A stretch of 32,949 bases of DNA from an uncultured Oscillospiraceae bacterium. Lineage in GTDB: Bacteria > Bacillota > Clostridia > Oscillospirales > Oscillospiraceae. The notes under the pieces are model-generated. The model made no database searches, had not been told where the DNA came from, and saw nothing but the letters and a program-made list of their open reading frames with translations. Both the position numbers and the translations under genes were made by a program. Below, one piece after another: positions 26,225-32,924 of the stretch; position 1 is the first letter of the stretch, and each line of letters starts with the position of its first letter. The stretch is from contig CAKTQE010000020.1 of NCBI GenBank assembly GCA_934593275.1, positions 1-32,949 on the forward strand, written 5' to 3'.

Positions 26225-27436
26225 TTGAAGATTACGAAAGTTGACGTATATATGTTAGATGCCGGTGTCCAGCGTGCCAGCCGCCGCCCCATCATCGCCC
26301 GTGTTTCCACAGACGAGGGGATCTACGGAGACGGCGAGGCCGGCATCGCTCTGGGGACCGGTGCCCCGGCCGCTTTCGGGATGGTACAGGATCTGGCCAG
26401 ACTGATCATCGGCCTGGATCCCTTTGACACGGAAAAAATCTATCATCGCCTGATGAAAAGCAGTTTCTGGGGCATTGGCTCCGGGGCCATCGTCATGGCT
26501 GGTATCAGTGCTCTGGACATTGCCCTGCTGGATATCAAAGGAAAGGCTCTGGGCGTTCCCGTCTATCAGCTGCTGGGCGGCAAAACCAGAGAAGAACTCC
26601 GTTGCTATGCCTCTCAGCTGCAGTTCGGCTGGTGCGACCGGATCGGTCCTTTCGGAAAGACGGAGGATTACGTTAAAATCTCCGAATACGCCCTGTCCCA
26701 GGGCTACGACTGCATCAAAGTCGACTTCACCCAGTTTGACCGGGATGCCGTTCGCCTGGGTACCCATGCGGTGGAGGGAATTCTCCCTCGCCCCATGATC
26801 AACATGATCGATGAGCGTATGGGTGCCATCCGGGACAGTCTGGGATATGACTTTGACATCATCGTTGAAAACCACTGCCGTACCGATGCCATCAGCGGTG
26901 TCCAGATCGGCGAACTGTGCGACAAGTACAAGGTTATGGCATATGAGGAGCCTGCCATGCCCCAGAATCCGGAAATGCACAAAATCATCCGTGACAAGAT
27001 CCGCACCCCCATCGCCACCGGCGAACGTGTCTACGGCAGCAGAATGTATTACAGCTTTTTCAAGAACGATGCGGTTCAGCTGATTCAGCCTGATATTTGC
27101 AACTGCGGTGGATTGACCGAAGGGAAGAAGATCTGTGATATGGCTGCGGTGTTTGACGTAACCGTCCAGGCCCACTGCGCCGGTTCCCCCATCTCCACCG
27201 CTGCCGCCATTCAAATCGAGGCGGCCATCCAGAACTTCTGTATCCATGAGCACCACTTCCGCAGTACACAGCCCGCACTGACCAAGCTGTGCAAATACGA
27301 CTACCAGCCCAGAAACGGCAAATACTACGTCTCCGACTTCTCCGACAAACCTGGCTTGGGTCAGGAGATGAGCGATTGGGCCATGGAAAACGCCTTGATG
27401 CACGTCACCGTAGACGAGTACTGGCGTGGCCTGTAA
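26225..27436 (+). CDS. Enolase-superfamily acid dehydratase, mandelate racemase subgroup
   Basis: 403 residues from a TTG at 26225 with GAGG about 9 bases upstream. N-terminal capping domain, then a (beta/alpha)7 barrel. Catalytic positions can be placed: KVDF at the second strand; metal ligands in VENHC (Glu, where many members have Asp), YEEPAMPQN and ATGERVYG; Asp in QPDICNCGG paired with His in QAHCAGSP as the general base; Glu in HEHHFRS. This pattern fits MR-subgroup dehydratases of sugar acids or hydroxy-acids, such as galactonate or related dehydratases. Last gene of the tct operon, so its substrate is probably what the transporter imports. Not a muconate cycloisomerase by its His-Asp pair. 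Confidence 0.88.
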   Translation: MKITKVDVYMLDAGVQRASRRPIIARVSTDEGIYGDGEAGIALGTGAPAAFGMVQDLARLIIGLDPFDTEKIYHRLMKSSFWGIGSGAIVMAGISALDIALLDIKGKALGVPVYQLLGGKTREELRCYASQLQFGWCDRIGPFGKTEDYVKISEYALSQGYDCIKVDFTQFDRDAVRLGTHAVEGILPRPMINMIDERMGAIRDSLGYDFDIIVENHCRTDAISGVQIGELCDKYKVMAYEEPAMPQNPEMHKIIRDKIRTPIATGERVYGSRMYYSFFKNDAVQLIQPDICNCGGLTEGKKICDMAAVFDVTVQAHCAGSPISTAAAIQIEAAIQNFCIHEHHFRSTQPALTKLCKYDYQPRNGKYYVSDFSDKPGLGQEMSDWAMENALMHVTVDEYWRGL

Positions 27437-27479
27437 GCACCACTTCATATTCACCAAAGGACTCGCTGTTTTTATTGAT

Positions 27480-27517
27480 TTCCTCCAATGCCGGGCATCT
27501 GGTATTGGGGGAATTTT
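27480..27517 (+). terminator. Terminator of the tctCBA - dehydratase operon
   Basis: 13-bp stem with two G-U pairs (27480-27492 with 27501-27513), 8-base loop, then TTTT. Confidence 0.65.
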
Positions 27518-27764
27518 CAAGAATGTTTTGTGTCATACTGTTTTAAAGCCGCAGATTTGAAAGATTACATCATGTACAAAGCCTACGAAAAAAATCATTC
27601 AGGCGATGATATTACACCATGATAATAATACTATCCCTTATAGAATAAAAGTAACTTCTAGGTTAAATTTAGCGAAATGGTCCAGATCTGATAATCATCC
27701 AGTGTAAAGATATGACGAATAGCAAAATTACCCTTGCCAAATTTCATTACAACAATAAAAGCAC
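27518..27764. other. AT-rich gene-free stretch at the edge of the mobilisable element
   Basis: No convincing ORF, RNA gene or long repeat is seen. Composition is much richer in A+T than the metabolic region before it. The left end of the mobilisable element probably lies here or just after, but I cannot point to an attachment site because the right end is outside the window. Confidence 0.4.
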
Positions 27765-27793
27765 TTGACAATCACGAATATATGTTCTACAAT
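27765..27793 (+). promoter_or_regulatory. Strong sigma-A promoter of a candidate small RNA
   Basis: TTGACA (27765-27770), exactly 17 bases, TACAAT (27788-27793). No ORF with a ribosome site follows; a structured stretch and terminator do. Confidence 0.75.
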
Positions 27794-27953
27794 GCAAACA
27801 GGCTGAATCATCATAACTAAATATCCCCGTACTCAAATCGCGCGAGCGGAGACAATGATGTAACATCATTGAGCTACCAAGCACCGTAAGAGGCTAATCT
27901 TCAGACAGGAGAACTCCTGCCTGTGTGGTTAGTGTCTTGCGGTGCTTTTCTGT
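27794..27953 (+). ncRNA. Candidate structured small RNA of about 155 nt
   Basis: Lies between a near-consensus promoter and a T-rich end with no coding sequence. It has an 8-bp hairpin CAATGATG-TAA-CATCATTG (27853-27871). A large branched stem follows: AAGCACCGTAAGA (27879-27891) with TCTTGCGGTGCTT (27935-27947, one G-U), enclosing CTAA/TTAG and a CAGACAGGAG/CTCCTGCCTG stem (27902-27923). It ends in TTTTCTGTTTT. I do not recognise it as T-box, tmRNA, 6S or a known riboswitch. It could be an independent sRNA or an attenuated leader for tnpV, whose gene starts about 230 bases further. Confidence 0.5.
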
Positions 27954-27984
27954 TTTCCAGATGAGGGAATTGTGATGTGAGGCT

Positions 27985-28005
27985 ATGCAGCTTGACAAGT
28001 TCATA
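27985..28005 (+). repeat. 21-nt direct repeat, copy 1 (upstream of tnpV)
   Basis: Identical over 21 bases to 29167-29187. The core CTTGACAAGTTCATA holds a TTGACA box and the short palindrome CTTG-A-CAAG, so a shared promoter or operator is likely. Confidence 0.7.
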
Positions 28006-28114
28006 CCCGCCAGAGAATGGGATACGACTTTGCGAGGATAGGAGCAAGGCAACGCTGCGGTGAGATTTCGGGGTAGGAACGACATTGGAACAGGGCGGCA
28101 AGAAGGCGGTACAT

Positions 28115-28143
28115 TTGCGAGGTGTAGAGCGGTGGCCTATAAT
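28115..28143 (+). promoter_or_regulatory. Candidate tnpV promoter
   Basis: TTGCGA (28115-28120), 17 bases, perfect TATAAT (28138-28143), about 38 bases before the tnpV start. Confidence 0.5.
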
Positions 28144-28180
28144 ATGCGTACCATCTGAAAACCAAACAGGAGGGACACAT

Positions 28181-28525
28181 ATGGAAATCACCTATACGCT
28201 CGTCGGGGACTATTATCTCCCCAATCTGGTTGCGCCGGAAAGCCCAAAGGTAGGACGTTGGGGAATGCTGCGTTTCAACTATTTGAGAAAGCACCGAGAA
28301 GCACTTTATACCATAATGCTCATGGAGAACACGCTGAATCCCCATTTGGAAGATGTTGACTGTCAGGCGCAGGAAATGGAGCAGCAGCTCATTTCTCAGC
28401 TGGCACAACAGGAGGGCATTACCGAACAGCTGAAAGCGGAGAATCAGATGGAATGGGTTGCCCGGATGAACAGTATTCGGAATCGAGCAGATGAAATTGT
28501 ATTGAATGATCTCATCTATACCTAA
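28181..28525 (+). CDS. TnpV-family transposon-encoded protein
   Basis: 114 residues from the ATG at 28181, with AGGAGGG 6 bases upstream. The sequence pattern (MEITYTLVGDYYLPNLV, GMLRFNYLRKHR, QMEWVARMNSIRNRADEIVL) fits TnpV, a small protein encoded on clostridial mobilisable elements such as the Tn4451 group. Its biochemical function is not established to my knowledge. No transmembrane segment; largely helical. It is followed by a terminator and then the iteron array, so it forms its own transcription unit. Confidence 0.78.
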   Translation: MEITYTLVGDYYLPNLVAPESPKVGRWGMLRFNYLRKHREALYTIMLMENTLNPHLEDVDCQAQEMEQQLISQLAQQEGITEQLKAENQMEWVARMNSIRNRADEIVLNDLIYT

Positions 28526-28542
28526 AAAAGTGAATCATGAAA

Positions 28543-28590
28543 ATCGCCATGGTGCGTACTGATTCTGTCAGTCACACCGTGGCGGTTTTT
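28543..28590 (+). terminator. Terminator of tnpV
   Basis: CGCCATGGTG (28545-28554) pairs with CACCGTGGCG (28575-28584, one G-U), with an inner ACTGA/TCAGT stem, followed by GTTTTT. Confidence 0.82.
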
Positions 28591-28596
28591 GTCATT

Positions 28597-29160
28597 TCCC
28601 ACAAAAATAAAATATTTTCAGAAATCATATTAAAAAACGGTTCGTCTCAATGGCTATTTAAGTGAGAGGGAAAAATATTTTCGGAAAACACACTAACAAA
28701 ATCTCATTTTTGCCGCGATAGGTGAAGGGGGGATATCTCATGATGCTTCATCGAATTTCACAAAAATAAATTATTTCCCGAAACATGTAAAAAATCGGCC
28801 TGTTTCGTGGGCTCAATATATGAGGGGATTTGTGCAGGCTTCATGAAATTGAGAAAATATTGAGAGACACCTTTCATTTCGCCCATTCTGGATGCCTACC
28901 ACTTGAGAGGTTTTTTATGTAGTTTCCACGAAAACGAAAAGGTTTTGGGAAACACGCAAAAATCGGCCTGCTTCGATGCCTACCAAGTGAGGAGGTATTT
29001 AGGGGGACCTGCGTGAAAAATAAAAATTATTGAAAGAATGGAATATTTTAGGCCCTCCCGATGCCTACCACATGAGAGGTACCTCTAGCCCGAAAATATT
29101 TTTTGCAAAACACCCTCACAAAACCCCGTTTTCACCGCGATAAGTGAAGGGGTATTGTCC
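28597..29160 (+). repeat. Iteron array of about seven degenerate units, candidate parC centromere
   Basis: A non-coding stretch of repeated blocks. Each unit has an A-rich part (such as CGAAAATATTTT or CACAAAAATAAA) and a core. Cores: CAATGGCTATTTAAGTGAGA (from 28648), CCGCGATAGGTGAAGG (28713), GGCTCAATATATGAGG (28809), GATGCCTACCACTTGAGAGG (28891), GATGCCTACCAAGTGAGG (28975), GATGCCTACCACATGAGAGG (29060), CCGCGATAAGTGAAGGGG (29135). The TGAG/TGAA elements are spaced 60, 98, 83, 84, 85 and 72 bases, mostly near eight helical turns. The array lies directly upstream of parM and parR genes, the place of parC in type II partition loci, where the ribbon-helix-helix ParR binds repeats. An origin function is an alternative. 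Confidence 0.7.
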
Positions 29161-29166
29161 CCCTCA

Positions 29167-29187
29167 ATGCAGCTTGACAAGTTCATA
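29167..29187 (+). repeat. 21-nt direct repeat, copy 2 (upstream of parM)
   Basis: Exact copy of 27985-28005, placed just after the last iteron. TTGACA at 29174-29179 may be a -35 box; a TGATAC box follows with an 18-base spacer. The two copies head transcription units of the same element. Confidence 0.7.
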
Positions 29188-29468
29188 ATCATTCATCTGA
29201 TACATTCTGCCCCATCAGAGCCGGGAGGCCGTGCGCCATGACCGTGTTTAACGCGAGCGACAAACACGAGCCTCCAATGCAGGTTTGCAACCGACAAGGC
29301 GACGACGGTGGGGGCAGGACAATGATACTTCTCGAAAGAGCTGGGCGGAAGCGCAGGGGTGGAACTCCCATGGACCCGATTCGCTGTTGGGCATCAGGTG
29401 AATCCAGCGCGCACGGGGGCGAGGTCAAATAGATGCGCAAAAATCTGAATTTTGAAAGGAACGAACAA
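29188..29468 (+). other. GC-rich leader of parM, possibly with a 64-codon ORF
   Basis: About 280 bases between the candidate promoter and the parM start. An open frame of 64 codons runs from 29238 to a stop at 29432, directly before an ATG; GGGAGG lies 10 bases before its start. The predicted peptide is Gly/Arg/Asp-rich with no domain that I recognise. The base pattern (GC-rich blocks amid an AT-rich element) could also mean a structured leader RNA. I cannot decide between them. Confidence 0.4.
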
Positions 29469-30392
29469 ATGAAAAACAAAAACGGAATTTATATCATCGG
29501 TGTTGACCATGGCTTTGGCAACATCAAAACAGCCAACTGCTGTTTCCCCACGGGAATTGAAAGCAGCGACACGGAACCGACCTTCAAGAATGACCTGTTG
29601 ATCTATCAAGGCCGCTACTACCAGATCGGTGTTGGACATAAGGAATACGCCGCTGAAAAAGTAATGGACGAGGATTACTACATTCTGACCCTGGCAGCCA
29701 TTGCCCGAGAATTGAGCAGAGAACAAATTACCCAGGCCAACGTGTTCCTGGCGGCGGGGCTGCCCCTGTCCTGGGTGGCGAAGCAGCGGAAGGCGTTCCA
29801 GGAGTATCTACTTCAGAACAGTGCGGTGGAATTTACTTTTTGGAGAATAGAGTACCGCATCCGCATTGTGGGAGCGGCAGTTTATCCTCAGGGATTTGCA
29901 GCAATTGCGCCCATTGTCAACCACTTTACCGGCAGCAATATGCTCTGTGATATCGGCAACGGCACTATGAACATTCTGCGCACTATGGACAGCAATGTGG
30001 ATCTACGTCAGCTGTTCACGGAAAAGTACGGCGTGCAGCAGTGCGTCCTGGCTATCCAGGAGGCACTTATGCGGGAACATCATGCCGAACTGGATGAACA
30101 GATGACCCACAGTTTTCTGCGGTATGGCACAGCCGGCATTGACGTGGAGTTGGAAAAGACTATGAAGCTGGCAGCCAGTGATTATGCGAAAACGGTATTC
30201 CGCAAACTCCGAGAGCATGGCTACGATCCCCGGATTATGAAGCTCTATGTAGTCGGCGGCGGTGGCTGCCTGCTGAAGAATTTCTTTCCCATTGATTCCG
30301 GCAGAATCATCATCAACAGTGACATTTGTGCTACGGCCAAGGGATATGAGTACATGGCCGAGGTGCAAAATGTGACGGGAGGTGTGAAATGA
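29469..30392 (+). CDS. parM: ParM/StbA-family actin-like segregation ATPase
   Basis: 307 residues from the ATG at 29469 (AAAGGA 8 bases upstream); an ATG at 29433 also has a GAGG but adds residues before the conserved fold. Actin-fold motifs: phosphate-1 GVDHGFGNIKT (11-21), phosphate-2 CDIGNGTMNI (about 160-169), and the adenosine motif VVGGGGCLLKN (about 261-271). Proteins of this group form dynamic filaments that push plasmid copies apart, attached through ParR to parC. The parR-like gene overlaps its stop by the four bases ATGA, so both are made together. Presence on an element with a relaxase suggests a plasmid-like stage. Confidence 0.88.
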   Translation: MKNKNGIYIIGVDHGFGNIKTANCCFPTGIESSDTEPTFKNDLLIYQGRYYQIGVGHKEYAAEKVMDEDYYILTLAAIARELSREQITQANVFLAAGLPLSWVAKQRKAFQEYLLQNSAVEFTFWRIEYRIRIVGAAVYPQGFAAIAPIVNHFTGSNMLCDIGNGTMNILRTMDSNVDLRQLFTEKYGVQQCVLAIQEALMREHHAELDEQMTHSFLRYGTAGIDVELEKTMKLAASDYAKTVFRKLREHGYDPRIMKLYVVGGGGCLLKNFFPIDSGRIIINSDICATAKGYEYMAEVQNVTGGVK

Positions 30393-30712
30393 GGTCTACA
30401 AAAACCACAATACGCTTCAAGTTGTCCCGTGCCGAGGATGCCCGTGCGCTGGAGTATCTGAGGGATAGAAAAGCATCTGGAAGCTCTTTCAGCAAATCCG
30501 TGGTGCAGGCCATTAACGACTGCCTGGATGCCCAAGAGTCAGAAAGCCGAGAAGATTCCTTTATGGGCAGATTCCGGCTGATGCTCCGGGAGGAACTGAA
30601 AGAGCTGGGAAATATAGTTCCTTTTCAGTCTTTCTCGGAGCCGCCCCAGCCGTCGCAGGAAAACGCCGAGCAAACGCTGGCGTTTTTGGATGCTTTCGAC
30701 GGCATGGAATGA
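30389..30712 (+). CDS. parR: ParR-like ribbon-helix-helix adaptor
   Basis: 107 residues; ATGA overlap with parM and GGGAGG 6 bases before the start. The N-terminal TTIRFKLSRAED, followed by two helices (ALEYLRDRKA, FSKSVVQAINDCL), fits a ribbon-helix-helix DNA-binding fold. A linker and an acidic-hydrophobic tail (TLAFLDAFDGME) follow, like the ParM-capturing tail of ParR proteins. Identity rests on gene order, size and fold pattern. Expected to bind the iterons at 28597-29160. Confidence 0.75.
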   Translation: MRSTKTTIRFKLSRAEDARALEYLRDRKASGSSFSKSVVQAINDCLDAQESESREDSFMGRFRLMLREELKELGNIVPFQSFSEPPQPSQENAEQTLAFLDAFDGME

Positions 30713-30858
30713 GAAAATGACGGCGTTTTTTCGGGGAAACGCCATCGCTGCACCAACATACCCAAAAGCTACGCCGCCGCATTTGATGATTTGTGATGGC
30801 AAAATTGGAAAACACGGCGGCACTTTTGACCGAAAGTGCCGTCAGAAAGGAGGACACT

Positions 30859-31164
30859 ATGGAAAAGATAAGGGTGCTATCCAAAGCGCAATTGGCCCAA
30901 AGCGAATTTGATATCCGCAGCTATCATTTCATCACGGAAACAGGAACTTTTACCGCATATTTGGACTTGAAGATATGGGGAAAGCGTTGCCTGGAATGCT
31001 TCTTCACATTCGCGGATGGCAGGAAAATCGTTGCCTGTACGTTTCCGGAGGCGGATTATCTGGGCCTTGCGGATATTCCGATTGGTACAAATCTGAGATT
31101 GACCTTTGAAGAAACGGTAAGAAGCAAACGCATCTATCTACGGAAAGCGAATGCTGTCCTGTAG
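30859..31164 (+). CDS. Small protein of unknown function
   Basis: 101 residues from the ATG at 30859, chosen because AAAGGAGG (30846-30853) lies 5 bases upstream; an upstream in-frame ATG at 30793 has no such site. A 9-bp hairpin CGGCACTTT/AAAGTGCCG (30818-30841) lies directly before the ribosome site and may act as an attenuator or translational control. The predicted protein is a mix of beta strands (FHFITETGTFTAYLDLKI, ECFFTFADGRKIVACTF), basic at the C-terminus. No domain recognised. It lies between parR and the oriT-like region, so a role in mobilisation or maintenance is possible. Confidence 0.65.
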   Translation: MEKIRVLSKAQLAQSEFDIRSYHFITETGTFTAYLDLKIWGKRCLECFFTFADGRKIVACTFPEADYLGLADIPIGTNLRLTFEETVRSKRIYLRKANAVL

Positions 31165-31262
31165 TGTAACAAGCAGGGAACTTGTGTGCCGCAAGTTCCC
31201 CCTCTATCCCAGCGTACTGGGCTCCTCTTTGGGGAGTCCCCCAATCCCCCGAGCAAGAAAGA
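31165..31262 (+). other. Candidate origin of transfer (oriT)
   Basis: A non-coding stretch directly upstream of the mobC-like gene. It has three inverted repeats: GGGAACTTG/CAAGTTCCC (31176-31184, 31192-31200), CCCAG/CTGGG (31208-31212, 31217-31221) and CTCC/GGAG (31222-31236), then C-rich tracts. Such a cluster next to mobC and relaxase genes is the usual form of oriT. The nick site cannot be named from sequence. Confidence 0.55.
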
Positions 31263-31278
31263 CATAAGGAGTTGATTT

Positions 31279-31587
31279 ATGAAGAAAGAAAACAGAATTG
31301 CGCTCCGGGTCACAGACCAGGAGAAAAAGAGGATTGCAGTGCTTGCCAGAAAGTGTGGATTAAGCGTGAGCGAGTATGTGAAGCAGCGGGCATTGAGTTA
31401 TGCGCCGCAGCCAATCATTCCAGAAAGCGTGTTTCTCCTGTTGGAAAAAATCGGCCAGTTGCAGGATTTAACGGCATCCCCGGAAGCGGATGCCGCTATC
31501 TGTGCACTGCTGAAAGAGATCTCGGATGCCCTGCTTCTGCCCAGAAAGGAGGGTGCGCCTTGGCCGTTACCGGATTCTGGCCCGTAA
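31279..31587 (+). CDS. MobC-like ribbon-helix-helix mobilisation accessory protein
   Basis: 102 residues, start preceded by AAGGAG. The N-terminal KENRIALRVTDQEKKRIAVLARKCGLSVSEYVKQRAL is a ribbon-helix-helix domain of the NikA/MobC type, which binds oriT and helps the relaxase open the DNA. It lies between the oriT-like hairpins and the relaxase gene, whose start overlaps its end by 28 bases. Confidence 0.85.
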   Translation: MKKENRIALRVTDQEKKRIAVLARKCGLSVSEYVKQRALSYAPQPIIPESVFLLLEKIGQLQDLTASPEADAAICALLKEISDALLLPRKEGAPWPLPDSGP

Positions 31588-32924
31588 AGGGGCAGCTGAA
31601 AGCGGTGTTGGATTATGCGGATAACCCGGACAAGACCACGCCCCAGCGGTACTTAGACAGCGACCTCTACGTCACGCTGAAATACGCCGCCAATGATGCC
31701 AAGACGGACCGTACCATGTTCGTTGGCGGGATCAACTGTTCCAAGCAGAATGCCTATGGGGAAATGGTGGCCGTTCAGAAACGCTTTGGCAACCGTGGCA
31801 GCGTGGTGGCCTATCACGGGATCCAGAGTTTTCGAGAGGGGGAGGTCACGCCGGAGATGGCATTTGAGATCGGCAAGGAAACGGCCCGCCGGATGTGGGG
31901 GAATCGGTATCAGGTGCTTGTGACGGTGCATCTGAATACCGAAAACATCCATTGCCACTTTGTTGTGAATCCGGTTTCGTTCAAAGACGGAAGCAAATTT
32001 CAGAACAAAATAGGCGACCACAAGGAGCTGCGCAAAATCTCAGATGCCATTTGCCGGGAGCATGGCCTGTCGGTGCTGGAAAGCAGTGACTTCTATAAGC
32101 GCGAAAAGAAAGCCTACTGGCTTCACCGGCAGGGCAAGAAAACCCACCGGGATATGCTGCGGGAGGATGTGGAATACTGCCTGACCTATGCCAAAAACTG
32201 GGAACAGTTTGAAAAGCAGATGGTGTCCAGAGGCTATTCCATTGACCGAGTACGGCTTTCTGTCAAGGCAGCAAATTGGCAGCGGCCCGTCAGGCTGTCC
32301 TCGCTGGGGTATACCAAAGAGGTGCTGCGGAATCGGTTTGACGAGAATTTCTATTCCAATGATTTCCGACAGAAGTGGAACACCCACCTACCCTATAAGC
32401 CGAAGAAATTTCCGTTGGAGTGGGAAATGGAGCGACTGGCCTTTACCATTGAGCATAGCCACAACACAGAAGAAGTCTTTGTGGACACGGTGCTTCTGCT
32501 GCTGATCCTGGTGATAGAGCTGGTGCTGCAAACCACGGACGTGATTCTTCTCTCTCCTGACCTGCGGGCGGCGGCAAAGAACCTGGAAAGCTACCGTGCG
32601 GACTACCGCTTTCTACAGGAAAATGGAATCCACACGATGGCCCAGTTGGAAACTGCAATTCCGGACATCCAATCCCAGATTGATGCACTGGAGGCGGAAC
32701 GCAGTAAAACCGACAATACCCGCCGCAGGGCAAAGACACCGGAGAAAAAGCAAGAGGCCAAAGGCTGCAAAAAGGAACTCACCCAGAAAATCGCACCGCT
32801 GCGGAAAAAGCTGCGGCAGGCGAAAAAGATTCTGGAGGAATCCCCACATGTATACGAACTGCTGCAAGAAGAACACCGCCTGGAACAGGCGGCATATCAA
32901 AGATTCAGAGAAAGGATGAAATGA
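31560..32924 (+). CDS. MobP-type relaxase / mobilisation nuclease
   Basis: 454 residues from the TTG at 31560, with AAAGGAGGG (31545-31553) 6 bases upstream inside the mobC-like gene; the in-frame codons before it encode no domain. The early VLDYADNPDKTT holds the probable nucleophile Tyr19. The metal-binding triad is H124, H131 and H133 in HLNTENIHCHFVVNP. These belong to the relaxase family PF03432, which nicks oriT and pilots single-stranded DNA. Near the middle of the C-terminal half lies a long hydrophobic stretch (VFVDTVLLLLILVIELVLQ), then a coiled-coil tail rich in Lys/Glu. The hydrophobic segment could anchor the protein at the membrane near the coupling protein. The protein ends inside the window; no integrase or coupling gene is seen. 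Confidence 0.88.
   Translation: MAVTGFWPVKGQLKAVLDYADNPDKTTPQRYLDSDLYVTLKYAANDAKTDRTMFVGGINCSKQNAYGEMVAVQKRFGNRGSVVAYHGIQSFREGEVTPEMAFEIGKETARRMWGNRYQVLVTVHLNTENIHCHFVVNPVSFKDGSKFQNKIGDHKELRKISDAICREHGLSVLESSDFYKREKKAYWLHRQGKKTHRDMLREDVEYCLTYAKNWEQFEKQMVSRGYSIDRVRLSVKAANWQRPVRLSSLGYTKEVLRNRFDENFYSNDFRQKWNTHLPYKPKKFPLEWEMERLAFTIEHSHNTEEVFVDTVLLLLILVIELVLQTTDVILLSPDLRAAAKNLESYRADYRFLQENGIHTMAQLETAIPDIQSQIDALEAERSKTDNTRRRAKTPEKKQEAKGCKKELTQKIAPLRKKLRQAKKILEESPHVYELLQEEHRLEQAAYQRFRERMK

What the first reader, a model, noticed from the sequence alone, without database searches (positions are those of the whole stretch)
28597..30712. Complete actin-type partition locus (iterons, parM, parR) on a mobilisable element
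The sequence shows an array of seven degenerate cores, then parM and parR with an ATGA overlap, on the same element as a relaxase and an oriT-like region. Type II partition loci are known from plasmids. Here the locus sits next to chromosomal metabolic genes, so either the element integrates yet still segregates like a plasmid, or it is a plasmid recently integrated. The mostly 83-85-base phasing, about eight helical turns, is much longer than the short iterons of classic parC and would place ParR dimers on one face over about 500 bases.
Basis: partly seen in the sequence, partly recalled or inferred. Interest (0 to 1): 0.8.

Follow-up and report, generated by a model that had tools for sequence, protein, structure and literature searches.

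The report
Partition operon behind Tn916-type antiterminator
A gut-type bacterium's mobile DNA element carries an actin-like partition gene pair, and the RNA leader in front of it is related to the RNA that lets the well-known element Tn916 read through transcription stop signals, which suggests a job for a widespread RNA of unknown function.

Summary
parM (29469-30392) and parR (30389-30712, ATGA overlap) look like actin-type partition genes, followed by nikA and a relaxase. Seven degenerate cores lie upstream (TGA at 28663-29145), but only 3 of 6 spacings are 83-85. The array is probably not a ParMR-specific centromere: units of the same kind lie, mostly singly, in front of parA and other genes of other mobile elements (loci chosen because they carry the same leader RNA), and the one close relative, L023, has one unit. 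The leader is the unexpected part. It holds the orphan Rfam family pemK (29319-29373) and 118 nt of further conserved RNA (29201-29318). The same two stretches lie inside the experimentally proven antiterminator canT of Tn916: on the pCF10 copy, pemK starts at the three bases whose change killed canT and lies within the deletion that killed it. An rRNA-like boxA precedes 33 of 47 such leaders, though the window's own copy is weak. I conclude that parMR is run from a canT/pemK-type leader preceded by seven promoter- or operator-like units. Antitermination here is inferred; a centromere role for the array is not excluded.

The parts
27987..28100 (+). Conserved left-end block of the element, starting with a 19-nt copy of the boxA-like sequence
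   Evidence: 90% identity over 115 nt to L023 (MT839657.1), where it abuts an unrelated flank; one other flank only, so the end is likely, not proven
28181..28525 (+). tnpV-like gene (Pfam TnpV), 114 aa
   Evidence: PF14198, E 1.1e-42
28594..29152 (+). Array of seven units: A/T tract, then a core ending in TGAGAGG, TGAGGGG or TGAAGGGG; core TGA at 28663, 28723, 28821, 28904, 28988, 29073, 29145
29149..29162 (+). Short hairpin GGGG-TATTGT-CCCC right after the last core (boxB-like position)
   Evidence: sequence; the 45 nt before the boxA-like site of 48 pemK loci fold with mean z -1.8 against mononucleotide shuffles, the window's with -1.0
29169..29187 (+). boxA-like sequence GCAGCTTGACAAGTTCATA
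   Evidence: best site of the whole window for the best-scoring form of a motif found without the window in 43 pemK loci; only 8.1 bits, not outstanding, with a profile made from rRNA operons
29201..29318 (+). Upstream half of the leader RNA (model R1)
   Evidence: 50.9 bits, E 7.8e-13 (rough) with a model built from 16 other loci without the window
29319..29373 (+). pemK RNA (RF02913), downstream half of the leader
   Evidence: 48.1 bits, gathering score 34.8
29370..29432 (+). 20-codon open frame starting at the AUG that ends the pemK motif
   Evidence: translation
29469..30392 (+). parM, actin-like ATPase, 307 aa
   Evidence: Pfam ALP_N and MreB-like_C above cut-off; AF2 pLDDT 87.7 and ParM-family folds among the best PDB matches
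30389..30712 (+). parR-like gene, 107 aa; N-terminal TTIRFKL plus helices, C-terminal TLAFLDAF
   Evidence: position, ATGA overlap and homologues; AF2 model too weak to judge
30859..31164 (+). Small gene of unknown function (101 aa) between parR and nikA
   Evidence: open frame; no Pfam match
31279..31587 (+). NikA-like relaxosome gene
   Evidence: PF21983, E 1.1e-13
31560..32924 (+). Relaxase (MobA/VirD2 nuclease domain), 454 aa, TTG start after AAAGGAGGG
   Evidence: PF03432, E 4.1e-38; NCBIfam TraI/MobA(P) match below its cut-off

Best explanation
This is the maintenance and mobilisation operon of an integrative mobilisable (or similar) element of a Clostridia-type bacterium. ParM and ParR form an actin-type partition pair (ParM homology shown; ParR likely; polymerisation and partition inferred). 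The operon is transcribed from the region of the seven units, which act as tandem promoter or operator modules (inferred). The transcript then carries a short hairpin, a boxA-like site, a conserved 118-nt RNA and the pemK RNA. The last two belong to the same RNA family as the core of canT of Tn916 (shown by covariance models). By analogy with canT this leader makes the RNA polymerase that transcribes it read through terminators, which would couple expression of parMR, and perhaps of nikA and the relaxase behind it, to the element's own start site (inferred). The array is not primarily a ParR-specific centromere, although ParR may bind there and repress, as in type II systems where parC overlaps the promoter (recalled).
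For: ParM: Pfam, profile match to Alp12, pCBH ParM, Cbc-ParM and Dh-cParM1, AF2 pLDDT 87.7, pTM 0.82, Foldseek best matches Dh-cParM1, Ta0583 and pSK41 ParM. Module: of 41 parM-bearing sources 25 have a relative of this relaxase, 20 of this NikA and 12 of this ParR. Leader: pemK above cut-off; R1, built from 16 other loci and from the part upstream of pemK only, finds the window (E 7.8e-13) and the canT region of pCF10's Tn916-type element (E 7.4e-10), in each case ending at the base before pemK. It hits 12 of 18 sources, the 12 that carry pemK, and not the 3 rRNA loci or the 3 parM loci without pemK. canT: in PMC11658703 (passages) canT is nt 126-577 after the orf8 stop, the 3-bp mutant starts at nt 283, the deletion is 229-390; on L178 pemK is nt 283-383, and the three mutated bases are its first three. 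A hairpin of the upstream half covaries over 19 loci: 87.4% of 95 cells paired, score 0.724 against at most 0.180 when slid. boxA: the motif found in 43 pemK loci resembles boxA of rRNA operons of four genomes of the same order; 33 of 47 loci have it at p 0.01 or better with a profile made from those rRNA operons alone. Genes behind 48 pemK loci, by motif pattern: 12 serine recombinase, 11 MazF/PemK, 9 ParA, 4 tyrosine recombinase, 3 ParM, 9 other. Unit sharing: the window-core profile finds sites at p 0.01 or better in 7 of 43 other loci, 0.4 expected; direct matches window-L063 (parA) 78% over 51 nt, E 5e-5, and L007 (parM)-L064 87% over 77 nt, E 7e-21.
Against: The window's own boxA-like site does not stand out with the rRNA-derived profile (8.1 bits; the best site of the tested region is elsewhere, p 0.066). 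The leader's single-sequence folding energy is ordinary (z -0.26), and in the covarying hairpin the window forms only 3 of 5 standard pairs (my reading of the row). No + strand terminator beyond chance lies between leader and relaxase, so a target of antitermination is not visible. In Tn916 a 291-nt fragment holding the essential sequences was inactive, and the active 452-nt fragment lacks the first five bases of boxA: pemK alone does not suffice and an intact boxA was not needed there. canT coordinates were applied to pCF10's copy, not to Tn916 itself, and only the R1 and pemK stretches were compared, not all 452 nt. The promoter reading of the units rests on position and composition; I could fix no shared -35/-10. 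The unit-profile hits at p 0.01 are partly related sequences (5 of 7 are parA loci), 36 of 43 loci have none, and Tn916 has none by eye. Tandem repeats next to the leader were found in the window, by eye in L007, and in 1 of 35 instances of other loci (L098), which would also fit a ParMR-linked role. The seven cores are in helical phase.
Confidence: 0.6

Rival explanations
1. The array is the parC centromere: ParR dimers bind the seven cores on one face of the DNA, and ParM filaments push sister copies of the excised, circular element apart.
For: Canonical place directly upstream of parMR, as srpC in SXT/R391; seven cores, imperfectly palindromic by eye, in 10.5-bp phase; tandem repeats next to the leader in the window and by eye in L007, but in only 1 of 35 instances of other pemK loci.
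Against: Units of the same kind lie in front of parA and other genes; L023, with a 91% identical leader, has one unit; parM at 73% identity lacks the array, though without a recognised ParR; relatives with parC-like repeats (pRUMAL02, L102) have short ones at the promoter, by eye.
Confidence: 0.25
2. The pemK RNA is a conventional cis-regulator (translation or attenuation control at the AUG that ends the motif, with a short leader peptide), not a processive antiterminator; it overlaps canT, but other parts of canT do the work.
For: Rfam files it as cis-regulatory; the motif ends in a conserved hairpin and AUG; a 20-codon frame follows in the window; the 291-nt canT piece with the essential bases was inactive.
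Against: The three bases whose change inactivates canT are the first three of pemK, and the inactivating deletion removes pemK; leaders precede genes as different as parA, mazF, recombinases and xis-int.
Confidence: 0.2
3. Decayed remnant: the element is a degraded integrated plasmid and the partition genes are relics.
For: The window shows only one end and no integrase among the 10 frames scanned; host metabolic genes adjoin.
Against: tnpV, parM, parR, nikA and the relaxase have open frames; homologues at up to 92% over 96% of ParM and 83-93% for the 120 listed ParR relatives exist in metagenomes; the leader DNA is 91% conserved in L023 although ParM there is 58% identical over its first 155 residues.
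Confidence: 0.08

Closest known systems
canT antiterminator of Tn916 (PMC11658703; passages read)
   Same: Holds the same two abutting RNA stretches (R1 and pemK) and a boxA-like sequence before them, at the head of mobile-element genes
   Different: canT precedes xis-int and reads across the closed circle into conjugation genes; here the leader directly precedes parMR and is preceded by seven units, none of which I see in the pCF10 copy (by eye)
srpMRC of SXT/R391 ICEs (PMC4489591; passages read)
   Same: Actin-type parM and small downstream parR-like gene on an integrative element, repeats upstream
   Different: srpC has four 13-bp repeats in a 251-bp region bound by SrpR, and the operon depends on SetCD; no such leader in the passages seen
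Chromosome-encoded ParMs Dh-cParM1 and Cb-cParM (PMC12270681; abstract and passages)
   Same: ParM relatives of Firmicutes outside plasmids; Dh-cParM1 is the best Foldseek match of the window's ParM
   Different: Cb-cparC has three palindromic repeats; no mobile-element or leader context in the passages seen
pemK RNA, Rfam RF02913
   Same: The window holds a match of 48.1 bits over the 34.8 cut-off
   Different: Rfam's 61-nt model covers only the downstream stretch; parM context was seen in 3 loci here
conAn of pLS20-family plasmids (PMC8955417; passages; the 2021 original is not held)
   Same: Antitermination at the head of a mobile-element operon in Gram-positive bacteria
   Different: Two components, protein ConAn1 and RNA conAn2; not compared by sequence here

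Membership tests
Type II (actin-type, ParMRC) partition locus | ParM: actin-fold ATPase of the ParM/ALP group | tested here: met
   (sequence and predicted fold; ATPase activity and filaments not testable)
Type II (actin-type, ParMRC) partition locus | ParR: small DNA-binding adaptor (ribbon-helix-helix) encoded after parM | tested here: inconclusive
   place, size and sequence pattern fit; AF2 pLDDT 56.7, no PDB match at E 1
Type II (actin-type, ParMRC) partition locus | parC: ParR-binding iterons next to the operon | not testable with these tools
   an array is there, but units of its kind are shared with parA and other loci
pemK RNA RF02913 | covariance-model score at or above the gathering score | tested here: met
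   48.1 against 34.8 bits
canT-type antiterminator | sequence and structure homology to canT | tested here: met
   window and canT region of L178 both match R1 and pemK, abutting; the rest of the 452-nt canT was not compared
canT-type antiterminator | processive read-through of terminators in cis | not testable with these tools
   needs a reporter; shown for Tn916 in PMC11658703
rRNA-type boxA (nut) antitermination | boxA sequence like that of rRNA operons | tested here: inconclusive
   33 of 47 pemK loci at p 0.01 or better, but not the window itself (p 0.066, other site); L023 p 0.0066
Integrative and mobilisable element | integrase, both ends, and relaxase with oriT but no mating-pair genes | tested here: inconclusive
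   relaxase and NikA present, left end supported by L023; right end, integrase and oriT not seen

The most novel reading that the evidence does not exclude
The orphan Rfam family pemK is part of a canT-type processive antiterminator with an rRNA-like boxA, used across Firmicutes mobile elements to run their integration, toxin-antitoxin and partition genes (parA as well as parM) as one shared expression device; the seven-unit array is a tandem promoter set, perhaps read by an element-encoded sigma-like factor, that feeds transcription into this terminator-resistant mode.
Probability: 0.45. Interest if true: 0.82.

Novelty: new variant of a known kind. Interest (0 to 1): 0.68.

Why it matters
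It proposes a function, testable at once, for an RNA family found in 48 of 147 genomes sampled here. Published Tn916 mutants already fit it: the inactivating 3-bp change hits the first three bases of pemK and the inactivating deletion removes pemK. It also suggests that partition systems of two unrelated types, toxin-antitoxin genes and integrases of gut mobile elements share one expression device, and it warns against calling any repeat array next to parM a centromere.

Tried and rejected
Rejected or without result: the array as classic short-iteron parC (TRF finds no tandem repeat at score 30 in 27400-31600); a sigma-70 promoter in each unit (8 promoter-like sites, 4.9 expected, none recurring from unit to unit); a strong fold of the single leader (z -0.26). 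Close relatives of the element: none by DNA in plasmids, none in viral contigs, ParR at most 40% in 394 genomes and at most 43% in 391 genomes; the phage collection gave L023. No near-identical copy of the host genes next to the element was found in 394 genomes. The window's assembly is not held. I first took the motif TTGACA-N18-GATAC upstream of the leaders for a promoter; the likeness to rRNA boxA made me drop that. A group II intron, a riboswitch and a hammerhead were considered from memory only and not pursued. In one search the relaxase and small-gene queries were out of frame; one search repeats the relaxase search in frame.

Rows dropped before counts: of 59 pemK instances 51 were kept after removing duplicates, 48 of them with a readable downstream frame; profile scans used the 47 with enough upstream DNA, and the de novo motif the 43 left without the window, L023, L007 and short ones. 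My instance filter is a pattern, not the Rfam model, so some Rfam hits (for example L061, L062, L082) are not among the 51. L007 and L023 were found through parM, so 3 ParM loci in 48 is not a fair rate. Gene classes are by motif pattern, so some loci in 'other' are probably classifiable (L071 is a Tn916-like integrase, L075 probably parA). The control used 57 parM upstream stretches with duplicates: 2 at p 0.01 or better (window, L023), 8 at p 0.05 or better, of which 4 are the window, L023 and L007 twice. In one search self-repeats were also found in L069 and L080, several hundred bases away from the boxA-like site; I did not count these. The five upstream proteins were chosen because they looked sigma-like; a fair rate was not measured.
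Full report
What is there. As far as it was scanned, the part of the window before 27.4 kb is chromosomal (ileS at the left end; tRNA-Thr and tRNA-Tyr; TctC, TctA and an enolase-family dehydratase). A block starting at 27987 is 90% identical over 115 nt to a human-gut contig, MT839657.1 (L023), where it abuts a different flank. I take this as the left end of a mobile element. Then follow a TnpV-like gene, the array, a leader, parM, parR, a small unknown gene, a NikA-like gene and a relaxase. The window ends 25 bases after the relaxase, so integrase, oriT and right end are not seen.

The partition genes. ParM (307 aa from 29469) passes two Pfam cut-offs. A profile of 30 homologues matches Alp12 and clostridial ParMs in the PDB. 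The AlphaFold2 model (pLDDT 87.7) is closest to Dh-cParM1, Ta0583 and pSK41 ParM. ParR (107 aa) overlaps parM by ATGA. It has a TTIRFKL strand-like start and a C-terminal TLAFLDAF, partly kept in distant relatives, which would suit a DNA-binding head and a ParM-binding tail, but its model is too weak to decide (pLDDT 56.7). Of 41 parM-bearing sources, 25 have a relative of this relaxase, 20 of this NikA and 12 of this ParR at E 0.001; many of the loci are short. So the partition reading is sound for ParM and likely for ParR.

The array. The seven cores are real (core 1 is weak), with spacings 60, 98, 83, 84, 85, 72 and approximate 10.5-bp phase. Each unit is an A/T tract, some 35-40 nt, and a core such as TGCCTACCACTTGAGAGG or CGCGATAAGTGAAGGGG. 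The test of the centromere view is whether the unit follows ParMR. It does not do so well. L023 shares 91% of the leader over 356 nt but has one unit and no tnpV in between. L001 and L002, with 73% identical ParM, have neither array nor leader, but also no recognised ParR. Units of the same kind lie at the matching place upstream of leaders of other genes: L063 (parA) shares 78% over 51 nt with the window array (E 5e-5), and a unit of the parM locus L007 is 87% identical over 77 nt to that of L064, whose downstream gene I could not name, with an exact 18-mer in L070 (parA). With a profile of the window's seven cores, 7 of the 43 loci that remain after removing the window, L023 and both L007 instances have a site at p 0.01 or better (0.4 expected) and 10 at p 0.05 or better; five of the seven are parA loci and partly related to one another. 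In the control, 57 upstream regions of parM hits with duplicates, 2 have a site at p 0.01 or better (window and L023) and 8 at p 0.05 or better, four of which are the window, L023 and L007 counted twice. Two more distant parM relatives carry, by eye, a different, classic-looking parC: short 9-10 bp repeats beside the parM promoter in pRUMAL02 and L102.

The leader. Rfam finds pemK RNA at 29319-29373 (48.1 bits). The family's name is too narrow. In 147 genomes of the order of G001, 48 have pemK. Of 48 loci with a readable downstream frame (L007, L023 and the window included) I count by motif pattern 12 serine recombinases, 11 MazF/PemK, 9 ParA, 4 tyrosine recombinases, 3 ParM and 9 others. Of five upstream proteins chosen because they looked sigma-like, four carry sigma-70 region 4. 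A motif search without the window over 43 loci returns GTTCCTTGACAACTGAATA, which resembles the boxA of rRNA operons of the same order (GTTCCTTGAAAATTGAACA before 16S in G358). A profile made from rRNA operons alone hits 33 of 47 loci at p 0.01 or better; the window's own copy is degenerate and does not stand out. The 45 nt before the boxA-like site fold better than mononucleotide shuffles (mean z -1.8 over 48 loci; window -1.0). Between boxA and pemK lies more conserved RNA. One hairpin there, over 19 loci, has 25 cells changed on both sides and a covariation score of 0.724 against at most 0.180 for slid versions; the window itself keeps 3 of its 5 pairs (row).

The link to Tn916. A search for antitermination in conjugative elements led to the Tn916 paper (PMC11658703; passages read), and one leader, L071, precedes a protein that is 66-75% identical to annotated plasmid integrases, one named after Tn1545. 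The antiterminator canT lies between orf8 and xis, at nt 126-577 after the orf8 stop. A 3-bp change at nt 283 and a deletion of nt 229-390 abolish it. I applied these coordinates to the pCF10 copy (L178). The bases at nt 283-285 are ATA as the paper states, and the opposite-strand frame has the 83 codons stated for orf5. pemK matches with 55.0 bits at nt 283-383: the mutation hits its first three bases and the deletion removes all of it. A boxA-like sequence is at nt 121-139. A covariance model R1 of the upstream half, built from 16 loci that include neither the window nor L178, finds the window at 29201-29318 (E 7.8e-13) and L178 at the stretch directly before pemK (E 7.4e-10). It hits 12 of 18 sources, those with pemK, and not the three rRNA loci and three pemK-less parM loci. 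pemK was also found between sigma/HTH and xis-int genes in two further plasmid elements, L175 (57.8 bits) and L176 (34.8 bits, just at the cut-off), but not in L173 and L174, whose integrase gene has a different upstream neighbour. Over 37 parM-bearing sources R1 is found in 2, L007 (twice) and L023. E-values of R1 are rough. The main text of the paper has no occurrence of pemK, Rfam or boxA. My searches showed no paper that joins pemK with antitermination: 3 of 3 listed, 12 of 487 and 12 of 99 were seen as listings. The paper that I recall as the family's first description (Weinberg 2017) is not held.

Mechanism. Shown: the leader in front of parMR is homologous over 173 nt to the core of canT, and units of the array's kind are not confined to ParMR. 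Inferred: the leader is a processive antiterminator; transcription starts in the array; parMR, and perhaps the relaxase genes behind it, are thereby expressed from the element's own control. Against it: no convincing + strand terminator lies between leader and relaxase, the window's boxA is poor, and in Tn916 a fragment with the essential bases but less of the surrounding sequence was inactive. Tandem repeats next to the leader occur in the window, by eye in L007, and in 1 of 35 other instances (L098, before a serine recombinase), so a centromere role co-opted from promoter units stays possible.

Known or new. Partition on integrative elements (srpMRC), chromosomal ParM and antitermination in conjugative elements are in print. 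New here, as far as the searches named above go, are the coincidence of pemK RNA with the essential part of canT, the boxA-like sequence at most of these leaders, and a parMR operon under such a leader.

Noticed in passing
window 27987-28005 and 29169-29187: The same 19-nt boxA-like sequence occurs at the element's left end and in the parM leader.
   Followed up: partly
window 27832-27952: A long hairpin just outside the left end is 77% identical over 121 nt to MT838441.1 (L103), so it may be a mobile or repeated sequence itself.
   Followed up: partly
window 29469-30712: The 120 listed of 235 ParR homologues are all 83-93% identical, while the 120 listed of 4449 ParM homologues fall to about 60%; parM and parR may be exchanged separately between elements.
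   Followed up: no
L007:160-1300: Two leader copies, 94% identical over 336 nt and 774 bp apart, with unit-like stretches between them, in front of one parM.
   Followed up: partly
L098 upstream of pemK: About 95-bp tandem repeats with A/T tracts precede the leader of a serine recombinase, like the parM array.
   Followed up: partly
window 29370-29432; L063: The AUG closing the pemK motif opens a 20-codon frame in the window; in L063 the frame from that AUG runs into ParA.
   Followed up: no
L188 (pRUMAL02) and L102 upstream of parM: Short 9-10 bp direct and inverted repeats beside a promoter-like site look, by eye, like a classic parC.
   Followed up: no
window 30719-30746 and 30818-30841: Two strong hairpins after parR, scored as terminator-like only on the minus strand.
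   Followed up: no
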